Shown piece after piece: positions 3,152 through 7,199 of a stretch of 46,324 nt of DNA (within the stretch, counting starts at the first letter, position 1; each line of letters begins with the position of its first letter). The notes below the pieces were generated by a model. The model saw only the letters and a list, made by a program, of their open reading frames with translations. It made no database searches and had not been told where the DNA came from. Position numbers and translations under genes: made by a program. Origin of the DNA: Helicobacteraceae bacterium (GTDB lineage: Bacteria; Campylobacterota; Campylobacteria; Campylobacterales; Sulfurimonadaceae); NCBI GenBank assembly GCA_027066325.1, contig JAMONY010000002.1, forward strand, positions 1 to 46,324, in the 5' to 3' direction.

Positions 3152-4399
3152 CTACTCTTTTACAATCTTGCCACATCTATACTGAACTTCTCTGCTGCTA
3201 TTGAGATCATACAGTATCTGTCTACCATCTAATAAACCATATCTATAAGAAGACTCCTCTACTAAAAGAGCATCACTATCCCATCGATACACCTTACCAT
3301 CAATCAGATCGTCTTTAAATTGTACTTTAGCTGCTAGTTTACCATCTGGATACCACTGCTGTTGTAGATCATCTCTGAAGCCATGTTTATACTCTACCTG
3401 AGACATAAGTGTACCATTTGGGTACCAGATACTAGCTGTTCCATCTGGTAGATTTTGACTATATCGCACACTACTCTCTAAGACGCCATCTCTATAGTAT
3501 CGTTCCAAAATACCATCTAGCTTACCATCCCTAAACTCTGCCTTGATCCTCTCCTCACCGCTCTCATACCAGACAATCATCTTGCCATGGTATCTGCCAT
3601 CTTGCAAGTGAACTTGCATCTGCTTCAAAAGACCATCATCAAACATAACTGTAAGCTGAGATAGATTGTTATCTAGTTTTTTTACAATGAGCTTAGATGA
3701 GCTGTGAAATTTTAGATCCAACTCATCTTTGTGTACAACATACTCTATGGAAGATATGTGATTAAACCCATCGACTACTTGCTGCTGTTTACGCAAAACT
3801 TTCTTAATTTCTATATCACATATGTCTTGATGTTTAGGTTGAATAGCTTGAGGTTTCTGTTTTGGTTTGATCTGAGGTTTTGTATGGACTTTAGCAACTC
3901 TCTCTTCTGTTGACTTGGCATAAAATGTTGTTAGAAAAGTTTTTGCATCACTAGAGTTCTGTTTAGCTGCTCTTTGTAGCCACACCTTAGCATCTGATAT
4001 GTTGTTAAAATTCTTATATAGCAGTCTGCCGTATAAGAATTGAGCTTGGGCTATGCCCGAATCGGCCGCTATCTTAAGCCATCTCTTAGCTTCATCTTGA
4101 TCAAAATACCGTGCACTAGTATAGTGTAGTCCTAACTTAAAAGCGGACATTGTATGTCCTTGTGCAGCAGATGCTCTATACCATCTTATGGACTCTGCTC
4201 TATCTTTAGCAACGCCGTATCCCCTACTAAACATATATCCTAGATAGTACTGCACATCTCTATCGGTCTGCTGCTCAATAGGAATCCAGTTCTCATAAGC
4301 TTTAGCATAATGACCTCTCTTAGCAGCTTTTAAACCATCATCCACAGAGGCATAAATAGTTACAGTAAATACCAATAAAAGAGTTAAAAATCGCATCAA
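3152..4399 (-). CDS. Secreted Sel1-repeat / MORN-like repeat protein
   Basis: A 415 aa exported protein with an N-terminal signal peptide (hydrophobic core LLLVFTVTIYA). Residues about 40-155 form Sel1-type helical repeats (for example YYLGYMFSRGYGVAKD and KRWLKIAADSGIAQAQFLYG). A basic Lys/Gln/Pro linker follows (about 165-200). Residues about 255-405 hold roughly six repeats of about 22-23 residues of the MORN/YwqK type (GKMIVWYESGEERIKAEF, DGTASIWYPNGTLMSQVEY). Both repeat classes mediate protein contacts; no catalytic motif is visible. It diverges from the M6 protease operon across a short shared upstream region. The first codon is TTG at 4399 with ATG at 4396; AGAGG lies ten bases before the TTG. 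The specific function is unknown. Confidence 0.8.
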   Translation of the reverse strand: MMRFLTLLLVFTVTIYASVDDGLKAAKRGHYAKAYENWIPIEQQTDRDVQYYLGYMFSRGYGVAKDRAESIRWYRASAAQGHTMSAFKLGLHYTSARYFDQDEAKRWLKIAADSGIAQAQFLYGRLLYKNFNNISDAKVWLQRAAKQNSSDAKTFLTTFYAKSTEERVAKVHTKPQIKPKQKPQAIQPKHQDICDIEIKKVLRKQQQVVDGFNHISSIEYVVHKDELDLKFHSSSKLIVKKLDNNLSQLTVMFDDGLLKQMQVHLQDGRYHGKMIVWYESGEERIKAEFRDGKLDGILERYYRDGVLESSVRYSQNLPDGTASIWYPNGTLMSQVEYKHGFRDDLQQQWYPDGKLAAKVQFKDDLIDGKVYRWDSDALLVEESSYRYGLLDGRQILYDLNSSREVQYRCGKIVKE

Positions 4400-4486: not shown

Positions 4487-5476
4487 ATGACCGAAACAGA
4501 GAAGCAAAAACAGTATCTATCTCTTCTAAAGTCTACCATTAGTAGTCGCGAAGATATAGATAAGCTACTATCAAAAGAGACATTTACGAAGAGTGTATTG
4601 GAGTTTTTAAATAGAGCCTCTGATATCATCTCATCTAAATCTTTAGACACTAATCTCATCACAGTATCTTACGACATAGTATCGATCATTTCGGACAAAT
4701 TTCAAAAAAAAGTAGAAGAGGGTCAGAATCCATTTGATCCCAAAATGCGTAGCTCAATAGATAAACTACTACTATCTCCAAAAGTGCTTGCCTATATCAA
4801 CAATAGCTACCAAGTAAGTCAGGCAGATCAAAATATTATAAAGATAGCACAACATCAACTAGAGCAAGATAAGCAGATATCATCACAACAGTATCTTAGG
4901 CTTCACCACTTCTTCTCAAACATCGATCTTCCAGCAGGCTCAAACTATATGCATATAGATGATGGGCGACACAAAAAGATAGAGCTATTGATCCAAGATT
5001 ATGAGAGTGCCTCATCACAAACATATCAAAAAAAGATCAATAGCATAACGGACCATCTAAACAAAGATAGCAGATCCAATAGCACAAAACTACAGATAAA
5101 ACGCTCTACTGTATGGATCATAATCTTTAGTGTAGTCATAGCTTCTACTGCTCTTTACTACTACCTTACGCCAGCACAGACAGCAAGCTACTCAACATCT
5201 GCTAGCATAAAACATAAAAGATCAGTTCCCCACAAGAGTACAAACATAGATACAAAAGAGCAGATAGAGCGTTTATCGTTAAAAATGGCTCAAGATAACG
5301 GCATAGGTAAAACTATACTACTCAACGAAAGCCCTACCCTAACATATCCGATCTCTATGTTTAAAAAAGGTATCAAGATAGATCCTATAGAGTGTCAAGA
5401 TAGAGCGATAGAGATCTTCACAATTGATGACATGAAGATCTACTGTTACAGTAACGACCAGATAGAGTCAATATGA
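4487..5476 (+). CDS. Single-pass membrane protein of unknown function, first gene of the M6 protease operon
   Basis: A 329 aa protein that I do not recognise. Residues 1-205 are hydrophilic and mostly helical, with many Lys, Gln and Ser. One membrane segment follows at about 208-227 (WIIIFSVVIASTALYYYL) after basic residues (QIKRS), predicting a cytoplasmic N-terminus. About 100 residues would then lie in the periplasm, with two Cys near the end (ECQD, IYCYS). ATG at 4487 is preferred over the upstream GTG at 4427, because the extra 20 codons cover the likely promoter region and the family cannot guide the choice. Its stop overlaps the M6 protease start by 4 nt (ATGA), so the two are translationally coupled. 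A regulatory or export role for the protease is a guess from context only. Confidence 0.7.
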   Translation: MTETEKQKQYLSLLKSTISSREDIDKLLSKETFTKSVLEFLNRASDIISSKSLDTNLITVSYDIVSIISDKFQKKVEEGQNPFDPKMRSSIDKLLLSPKVLAYINNSYQVSQADQNIIKIAQHQLEQDKQISSQQYLRLHHFFSNIDLPAGSNYMHIDDGRHKKIELLIQDYESASSQTYQKKINSITDHLNKDSRSNSTKLQIKRSTVWIIIFSVVIASTALYYYLTPAQTASYSTSASIKHKRSVPHKSTNIDTKEQIERLSLKMAQDNGIGKTILLNESPTLTYPISMFKKGIKIDPIECQDRAIEIFTIDDMKIYCYSNDQIESI

Positions 5477-6867
5477 GCTATAGCTACATACTACCTATCA
5501 TCTTTTTAGGTATCATACTCCAAGGGTGTGGAGGTGGTGGAGGTGGTGGAGGCTCACCTAGCTCAAGCTCTAGTAGCTCATCTTCAACTCACTCAACATA
5601 TGGATATGATCTGCCGCCAGTTATAGATCGGCAAAACAGAGCTCTTTTGGTGGTTCGCATTGAGTACAATGATACACGATTTGTCAACTCATCAGATATC
5701 TGGAATCGTAAGATATTTGGGTACAAAAATCATCAACTAAATCACTATTTTAGTACTCTCTCGAACGGACTTTTTACACTAAATATAGCCCAAGAAACCG
5801 ATGGTCTAAAAGATGGCATCATAGAGATCACACTACCAAGCCAACACCCAAACTCTACTAGTAATGGATCAATACATAAAGATCTAATACAAGCTCTAAA
5901 GATAGCCGATCAATACATAGACTTTTCAGCTTACGATACCAATGAAGACCAGAAGCTATCTGCTAATGAGCTACTCTTTTTATTTGTTGTTGCTGGTGGT
6001 GAAAAAGCTTTTTACCCAACTACAACTCCAAGTGTATGGGCACATCAACACTGCTTAAGTAGCAAAGATGCGCCCAAGCTTGATGCTATAAAAGTTCTAG
6101 AGTGTGATGATGGCAAATATGCGCTTATTGGTGAGAGGCATATTGAGCGCTCATACTCCAAAGATGCTACCATAGGAATCATAGCCCACGAGCTCTCACA
6201 TGCAGCCTTTAATCTACCAGATCTCTACAGTACTGTCTCATCTGCTACCTCTGCTGGCATTGGCTATTTTGGACTTATGAGTAGTGGATTTTGGGGCAGA
6301 TCGTCCCTATCTGACCCATATGGAAACACACCTGTTATGATGAGCGCCTATAGTAGAGTAAAATCTGGGCTCATAAAGCCGCATATCAAGAGTGAGAGCA
6401 GACAAGCAGACCTTCTTCTACACGATACATCACAAACAGACTTTAATATCGCACTACTTCCTATAGATCAAAATGAGTATTTTTTGATTGAAAACCGATC
6501 GATACTAGGTTATGATGCAGGTCTTTTTGATCTTCAAGGTGGATATAGCGGAGGATTAGCGATATGGCATATAGATCAAAAGATCATACAGAGTCAACAA
6601 GCATCAAATAGCGTCAACAACAACCCTGCCCACAAAGGTGTAGATCTTGAAGAGGCAGATATCAGAAGACTAGATCTTGATAGCACATTTAAAGGTAGCG
6701 GTAAAAATCTGTACTATAGAGGCAATATAGACACCTTCTCACCCCAAAGTACACCATCATCAGATAGATACAGTGGGGCACCAAGTGGCATATATGTAGA
6801 CAATATATCAAGCTACAGTCAAACTATGCGCTTAAGAGTTACAAATCCAAACAAGGTACCACAATGA
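5473..6867 (+). CDS. M6-family zinc metalloprotease lipoprotein
   Basis: A 464 aa lipoprotein: signal peptide with lipobox LQGC (Cys19), then eight glycines, a serine-rich linker, and the catalytic domain. ALLVVRIEYNDTRF (58-70) and the following HYFSTLSNGLFTLNI match the start of M6 (immune inhibitor A-like) domains. The zinc motif is HELSHAAFNLPD (H239, E240, H243, D250), the M6 HExxHxxxxxxD pattern. DTNEDQKLSANE (155-166) is a well-formed EF-hand-type calcium loop. GLAIWHID and LDLEEAD-like segments further on are also typical of M6 proteases. M6 enzymes are secreted proteases; here lipidation would keep it on the envelope. The N-terminal TQPDG/ETEDG propeptide region often found in M6 proteins is missing and is encoded by the next gene (4-nt overlap). 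Confidence 0.85.
   Translation: MSYSYILPIIFLGIILQGCGGGGGGGGSPSSSSSSSSSTHSTYGYDLPPVIDRQNRALLVVRIEYNDTRFVNSSDIWNRKIFGYKNHQLNHYFSTLSNGLFTLNIAQETDGLKDGIIEITLPSQHPNSTSNGSIHKDLIQALKIADQYIDFSAYDTNEDQKLSANELLFLFVVAGGEKAFYPTTTPSVWAHQHCLSSKDAPKLDAIKVLECDDGKYALIGERHIERSYSKDATIGIIAHELSHAAFNLPDLYSTVSSATSAGIGYFGLMSSGFWGRSSLSDPYGNTPVMMSAYSRVKSGLIKPHIKSESRQADLLLHDTSQTDFNIALLPIDQNEYFLIENRSILGYDAGLFDLQGGYSGGLAIWHIDQKIIQSQQASNSVNNNPAHKGVDLEEADIRRLDLDSTFKGSGKNLYYRGNIDTFSPQSTPSSDRYSGAPSGIYVDNISSYSQTMRLRVTNPNKVPQ
5530..5553 (+). repeat. Glycine-codon tandem repeat in the lipoprotein linker
   Basis: Eight consecutive Gly codons directly after the lipobox Cys, built as two copies of GGAGGTGGT plus GGAGGC. A run of Ser codons follows. 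A change by whole 9-nt units would alter the linker length without breaking the frame. Confidence 0.75.
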
Positions 6868-7199
6868 GACCTATAACTCTAATCATCTTTGCATTAAGCA
6901 TCTCTAACATCATGGCCGCACCAGCACTCTCAAAAAAAGTGCTTTTAACCCAACCAGATGGTAGTAGTTTTACAGCAACACAAAGAGGTGATGAGTATCT
7001 AAACTGGATAGAAACAGAAGATGGATCTATACTAATCTTAAACGATAAAGAGGGTGATTTTGAGTACGCCATAATAGACGGATTTGAGTTAAAAGGCAAC
7101 AATGTAACATATCATAAAACAGATAGTAAAGCTAGAGATGGTGGTGTTACCAAGGAGCAGATCTACCAGCTATGGCAGATGAGGCGCAACCTTAGATAG
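6864..7199 (+). CDS. Small secreted protein resembling the M6 protease propeptide
   Basis: A 111 aa protein with a signal peptide (LIIFALSISNIMA, cut near residue 18). The mature part carries TQPDGSSFTATQRGDEYLNW and ETEDGSILIL, then FEYA. This matches the pattern VTQPDGTxxxxxxxGDExxxWxETEDG that I know from the N-terminal pro-region of many M6 metalloproteases. Here it is a separate gene whose ATG overlaps the stop of the catalytic gene by 4 nt. Each protein has its own export signal, so this is not one gene broken by a frameshift. It may act in trans as an inhibitor or folding partner of the upstream protease; that is inference. The C-terminus is basic (WQMRRNLR). It converges with the next gene, 4 nt apart. 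Confidence 0.75.
   Translation: MRPITLIIFALSISNIMAAPALSKKVLLTQPDGSSFTATQRGDEYLNWIETEDGSILILNDKEGDFEYAIIDGFELKGNNVTYHKTDSKARDGGVTKEQIYQLWQMRRNLR

What the first reader, a model, noticed from the sequence alone, without database searches (positions are those of the whole stretch)
4487..7199. M6 metalloprotease operon with its propeptide encoded as a separate downstream gene
Seen: three plus-strand genes joined by 4-nt overlaps. The middle one is a lipoprotein with the M6 zinc motif HELSHAAFNLPD and an EF-hand loop, but it goes straight from a Gly/Ser linker into the catalytic domain. The third gene encodes a 111 aa exported protein with TQPDGSSFTA and ETEDG, the pattern I know from the pro-region fused in front of many M6 proteases. 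Known: M6 propeptides accompany secreted proteases. Inference: the pro-domain acts in trans as inhibitor or folding helper, and the unknown membrane protein (first gene) may sense or regulate. This could be an envelope-anchored protease/inhibitor module.
Basis: partly seen in the sequence, partly recalled or inferred. Interest (0 to 1): 0.62.

Follow-up and report, generated by a model that had tools for sequence, protein, structure and literature searches.

The report
Zinc protease with separately encoded pro-domain
A family of environmental bacteria makes a membrane-anchored zinc protease whose pro-region, normally the front end of the same protein, is instead a separate exported protein encoded just downstream, so the part that would fold or restrain the enzyme has to act as a partner molecule.

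Summary
Three plus-strand genes overlap by 4 nt at each junction: a near-orphan one-TM protein, an M6 zinc-protease lipoprotein without pro-region, and a 111 aa exported protein. The central inference also holds at sequence level: the 111 aa protein is homologous to the N-terminal pro-region of fused M6 proteases (profile-profile 99.7%, E 4e-26), and an M6-blind profile search of about 494 other genomes found ten copies, nine fused to an M6 N-terminus and one directly beside an M6 gene. In this bacterial family the pair is conserved: 58 of 200 genomes have the small gene, all 58 have M6, only one genome has M6 alone, and 58 of 60 small genes lie directly downstream of the protease. Two genomes hold a copy unlinked to M6. 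Stand-alone pro-domains form one clade, suggesting one main fission with reversed gene order. The first gene is not part of the module (one distant relative in 121 genomes, not beside M6), so the 'trio' and its sensor role are unsupported. Trans-acting inhibition or folding is the best explanation but untested; the structure predictions returned no interface information.

The parts
4487..5476 (+). gene 1 (P0001, 329 aa): one-TM protein of unknown family, TM about residues 208-227 (5108-5167); overlaps gene 2 here but is not part of the conserved module
   Evidence: ORF; no significant Pfam/NCBIfam family; 2 of 121 family genomes including its own
5473..6867 (+). gene 2 (P0002, 464 aa): M6 metalloprotease lipoprotein without its pro-region
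   Evidence: TIGR03296 2.3e-38 and Pfam PF05547 above cut-offs; no pro-domain profile match; alignment
5527..5529 (+). lipobox cysteine (LQGC, Cys19) of gene 2
   Evidence: read from sequence; a lipobox-like motif found in 36 of 45 Campylobacterota M6 ORFs scanned
5935..5970 (+). EF-hand-type Ca2+ loop DTNEDQKLSANE
   Evidence: sequence; Pfam EF-hand_6 only weak, E 0.21
6187..6222 (+). zinc site HELSHAAFNLPD (HExxH + 6 residues + Asp)
   Evidence: same spacing in the Campylobacterota clade and in four fused relatives
6864..7199 (+). gene 3 (P0003, 111 aa): stand-alone exported M6 pro-domain (signal peptide, six predicted beta strands, C-terminal helix)
   Evidence: profile matches to fused M6 N-termini; predicted strands/helix of a homologue; family survey
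6948..6977 (+). pro-domain signature TQPDGSSFTA
   Evidence: conserved in stand-alone and fused forms
7011..7025 (+). pro-domain signature ETEDG
   Evidence: conserved in stand-alone and fused forms

Best explanation
A two-gene zymogen. An ancestral M6 protease with N-terminal pro-region was split: the catalytic part carries a lipoprotein signal and is anchored in the envelope, and the pro-region, with its own signal peptide, beta-domain and helix, became a separate gene translated directly after it. The exported pro-domain then binds the catalytic domain in trans, helping it fold and/or keeping it latent until the pro-domain is removed. Shown: homology, split, gene order, co-conservation. Inferred: export and anchoring (from motifs), binding, inhibition or chaperoning, release.
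For: Homology: an HMM of 33 stand-alone proteins hits residues 22-100 of a 649 aa Desulfuromonadales M6 (E 2.6e-9) and 19-125 of a 626 aa Clostridium M6 (6e-7); stand-alone vs fused-only profiles 99.7%, E 3.8e-26. Specificity: in about 494 genomes of two other phyla not chosen for M6, 10 new pro-domain matches, 9 fused N-terminally to M6 and 1 directly downstream of an M6 gene. Co-occurrence: gene 3 in 58/200 family genomes, M6 in 59/200, all 58 shared; phylum sample 9/397 and 10/397, all 9 shared. Order: 58 of 60 gene-3 loci directly follow M6 on the same strand; 38 of 39 distinct junctions overlap or are at most 18 nt apart. Unlinked co-occurrence: two genomes hold a gene 3 far from their M6 genes, next to yaaA. 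One gene 3 behind two tandem M6 genes in G003. Shared predicted topology, six strands plus helix, pLDDT mostly around 90 in that domain. One clade of stand-alone pro-domains (support 94) and one of Campylobacterota M6 (96). HExxH and the Asp ligand are kept.
Against: No binding, inhibition or folding evidence; coordinates and interface scores were not returned, and overall pTM is only 0.66-0.68. Of 73 M6 matches, 15 have no gene 3 right behind them; most sit in genomes with a gene 3 elsewhere and some are fragments or contig ends, so some M6 may not need it. The GDE motif is GNQ in many Sulfurimonas-like copies, so no invariant acidic zinc-blocking residue is evident there.
Confidence: 0.62

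Rival explanations
1. Dedicated inhibitor (immunity protein) only: the protease folds alone and gene 3 merely protects the periplasm from premature activity, as described for SpeB-Spi or staphopain-staphostatin pairs.
For: Downstream small gene and tight coupling match that layout. Stand-alone propeptide mimics are known inhibitors (PMC6993865).
Against: Unlike the C10 proteases described, which keep their own propeptide, gene 2 has none left, so a folding role would be unfilled unless folding became autonomous.
Confidence: 0.22
2. Steric chaperone (foldase) only: gene 3 is needed for folding in the periplasm, then is degraded or leaves, with no lasting inhibition.
For: Near-perfect co-occurrence and loss of the pro-region from the protease; translation right after the protease.
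Against: M6 paralogues without adjacent gene 3 persist, though usually in genomes that hold one elsewhere.
Confidence: 0.2
3. The former pro-domain has been co-opted for something else, such as substrate capture, and no longer regulates the protease.
For: Unlinked copies in two genomes with long C-terminal tails; motif drift GDE to GNQ in one lineage.
Against: It does not occur without M6 in any of 200 family genomes, and pairwise distances of the two proteins correlate (r 0.77, best of 1000 permutations 0.26; shared ancestry alone would also give this).
Confidence: 0.1
4. One reading: gene 1 senses and controls the protease/pro-domain pair.
For: Gene 1 overlaps gene 2 by 4 nt here.
Against: No gene 1 homologue at any other pair locus; one distant relative in 121 genomes, on a different contig from M6.
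Confidence: 0.04

Closest known systems
Fused M6 proteases with N-terminal pro-region (NCBIfam TIGR03296 domain, e.g. the Clostridium simiarum L013 and Desulfuromonadales L014 proteins)
   Same: Homologous catalytic domain and homologous pro-domain, with a similar signal-peptide junction (A-P-A) and QPDG/GDE motifs
   Different: One polypeptide with the pro-region first; here two polypeptides, protease gene first, protease with a lipobox
Immune inhibitor A zymogen (PDB 4yu5, 4yu6; MEROPS M6)
   Same: Same catalytic family; best PDB relative by sequence (2.1e-5) and by fold of the fused homologue (1.7e-9)
   Different: A profile of this pro-domain finds no PDB relative, so the InhA pro-region is not recognisably the same type
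SpeB-Spi and Bacteroides C10 protease/inhibitor pairs
   Same: Small inhibitor gene beside the protease and co-transcribed with it (PMC3462683)
   Different: Cysteine proteases that retain their own propeptide; the Bacteroides inhibitors are staphostatin-like, not derived from the pro-region
Stand-alone subtilisin propeptide-like inhibitors (SUB1-ProM, TgMIC5, Pleurotus and yeast inhibitors; MEROPS I9)
   Same: Separate gene for a propeptide-like protein that acts on a protease in trans (PMC6993865)
   Different: Act on serine proteases that keep their own propeptide; eukaryotic; described as fold mimics, not as the protease's only pro-region

Membership tests
M6 metalloprotease (TIGR03296 / PF05547) | match above curated cut-off | tested here: met
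   132.7 bits vs 110.8 and 31.2 vs 22
M6 metalloprotease (TIGR03296 / PF05547) | HExxH zinc motif with downstream third ligand | tested here: met
   HELSHAAFNLPD; spacing one residue longer than HExxHxxGxxD, shared with its clade and with fused L166, L167, L168, L171
M6 metalloprotease (TIGR03296 / PF05547) | proteolytic activity | not testable with these tools
   needs biochemistry
M6 pro-region | sequence homology to N-terminal pro-region of fused M6 | tested here: met
M6 pro-region | N-terminal part of the same polypeptide as the protease | tested here: not met
   separate downstream gene
M6 pro-region | latency or folding function | not testable with these tools
   no interface information
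SpeB-Spi type protease/propeptide-like inhibitor pair | small partner gene directly linked to protease | tested here: met
   58 of 60 loci
SpeB-Spi type protease/propeptide-like inhibitor pair | protease also carries its own propeptide | tested here: not met
Bacterial lipoprotein | signal peptide with lipobox | tested here: inconclusive
   LQGC by eye and by pattern; no trained signal-peptide predictor available

The most novel reading that the evidence does not exclude
A lineage-wide obligate two-chain zymogen: the only pro-domain of an envelope-anchored M6 protease is a diffusible protein that must assemble with it in trans for folding and latency, and one pro-domain may serve several proteases in a cell, so latency is set by the ratio of two proteins rather than by cutting one chain.
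Probability: 0.4. Interest if true: 0.65.

Novelty: new variant of a known kind. Interest (0 to 1): 0.52.

Why it matters
Pro-regions are normally covalently tied to their protease. A natural, family-wide separation with reversed gene order gives a ready-made system for asking whether a pro-domain's folding and inhibitory functions work in trans, and how an envelope protease is controlled by stoichiometry. It also puts a testable function on a small exported protein that matches no curated family.

Tried and rejected
Pfam and NCBIfam on the 111 aa protein: only insignificant matches. A2 profile against PDB: nothing. Fold search of both models: significant matches are to metalloproteases, and the beta-domain gives no significant relative of its own. 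Complex geometry: a read-through model of a sibling locus (L004, protease plus pro-domain with the TAA read as Ser) and a natural fusion (L014) were predicted, but only confidences and secondary structure came back, so the active-site contact test could not be made. Viral contigs and plasmids: no relative. Other members of the order of G589: no further pro-domain (21 genomes). Literature: no paper found on split M6 pro-regions in the held open-access library; the InhA zymogen paper is not held. Artefact by frameshift of one fused gene rejected: the order is reversed, gene 3 has its own signal peptide, and the arrangement recurs in dozens of genomes. The one fused protein in a family genome (G026 contig 377, L122) may be contamination and was not used as an intermediate.

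Full report
What is there. Genes at 4487-5476, 5473-6867 and 6864-7199 overlap by 4 nt at each junction. Gene 2 is an M6 metalloprotease by two curated models, with a lipobox, a Gly/Ser stretch and an EF-hand-type loop. Gene 3 matches no curated family. The window is a whole contig of a 1.69 Mb genome, 99.9% complete, with one copy of gene 3. The nearest relatives in named records are titled Helicobacteraceae, Sulfurimonas or Sulfuricurvum, so this is most likely the Sulfurimonadaceae group of Campylobacterota (inference).

Gene 3 is an M6 pro-region. phmmer with gene 3 alone hit, besides its small homologues, exactly two large proteins, both M6 proteases. An HMM of 33 stand-alone proteins places the match at residues 22-100 and 19-125 of those fused proteases, at and behind the signal peptide. 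With a combined profile, about 494 genomes from the phyla of the Desulfuromonadales and Clostridium seeds were searched without reference to M6: ten new matches, nine at the N-terminus of an M6 protein and the tenth a separate gene directly downstream of one. Fused-only and stand-alone-only profiles align over 109 columns at 99.7%. Because the fused set was gathered with a profile that included stand-alone members, the unbiased points are the original two hits and the fact that every match lies on or next to an M6. Both forms also have a helix behind the beta-domain, which in fused proteins bridges to the catalytic domain, so the cut lies near the pro/catalytic boundary. Predicted secondary structure agrees: six strands and a helix in both.

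Gene 2 lacks it. No pro-domain match is found in gene 2 or in the other Campylobacterota M6 proteins paired with a gene 3, which go from a signal peptide and linker into the catalytic domain. Some relatives have Ig-like or other inserts there instead.

The pair is conserved, the trio is not. In 200 family genomes gene 3 occurs in 58, M6 in 59, and all 58 are shared; the one exception, G190, has a divergent M6. Both are patchy (13 of 18 genera; 2 of 8 sampled genomes of the window's genus), so the agreement is more than one shared ancestry, though Fisher's p of 5e-50 ignores relatedness and should not be read as a probability. Gene 3 lies directly downstream of M6 in 58 of 60 loci. In G034 one of two copies, and in G048 the only copy, lies elsewhere in the genome beside yaaA, yet M6 is still present. 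In 397 genomes drawn from the whole phylum the numbers are 9 and 10, and all 9 are shared. Of 39 distinct junctions 38 overlap or are at most 18 nt apart. Gene 1 has one distant relative in 121 genomes, on another contig than the M6 there.

History. In a quick ML tree the 50 Campylobacterota M6 proteins form one group (SH-aLRT 96), and M6 proteins without an adjacent gene 3 fall inside it, so they look like later losses or paralogues. Stand-alone pro-domains are one side of a branch against fused ones (94). The deeper position of the fused groups is unresolved. Four fused proteins from the phylum of the Desulfuromonadales seed share the one-residue-longer zinc motif HExxH+6+D with the Campylobacterota clade, which fits descent from such a fused form but is only one character. 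The window's protein has HELSH where nearly all relatives have HELGH and sits on a long branch. G589 shows a second, independent-looking split: a 1009 aa M6 followed by a 222 aa pro-domain that carries an insertion of about 90 residues; its match is weaker (5e-7, 9e-4).

How it would work. From established knowledge, pro-regions of secreted proteases aid folding and keep the enzyme latent. With the pro-region gone from the protease and a separate exported pro-domain always in the genome, assembly in trans is the simplest explanation. Inhibition versus folding cannot be decided here. Known precedents for separate partners are Spi for SpeB and stand-alone subtilisin propeptide mimics (PMC3462683; PMC6993865), but there the protease also keeps its own propeptide. 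No report of a split M6 pro-region was found in the held papers, which exclude most subscription journals.

Limits. Sequence evidence only; secretion and lipidation read from motifs; no interface data; many draft genomes; stand-alone forms outside the phyla sampled were not surveyed.

Noticed in passing
window 4487-5476: Gene 1 is nearly an orphan: besides its own genome only one of 121 family genomes has a relative (G028, residues 12-177, E 1.9e-10), not linked to M6.
   Followed up: partly
L176:4503-5171 (G589): Separate 222 aa pro-domain downstream of a 1009 aa M6 outside Campylobacterota, with about 90 residues inserted between the two conserved halves of the domain.
   Followed up: partly
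L125 about 3231-3725 and L129:2653-3147: Stand-alone pro-domain genes with long basic C-terminal tails, near yaaA and unlinked to any M6.
   Followed up: yes
L122:1-1090 (G026 contig 377): Fused pro-domain plus M6 in a Campylobacterota draft genome; may be a contaminating contig.
   Followed up: no
window 6187-6222: HELSH replaces the HELGH of nearly all relatives, and the protein sits on a long branch, so the window's protease may be diverging fast.
   Followed up: no
L119:2257-6532 (G003): Two M6 genes in tandem followed by a single pro-domain gene.
   Followed up: partly
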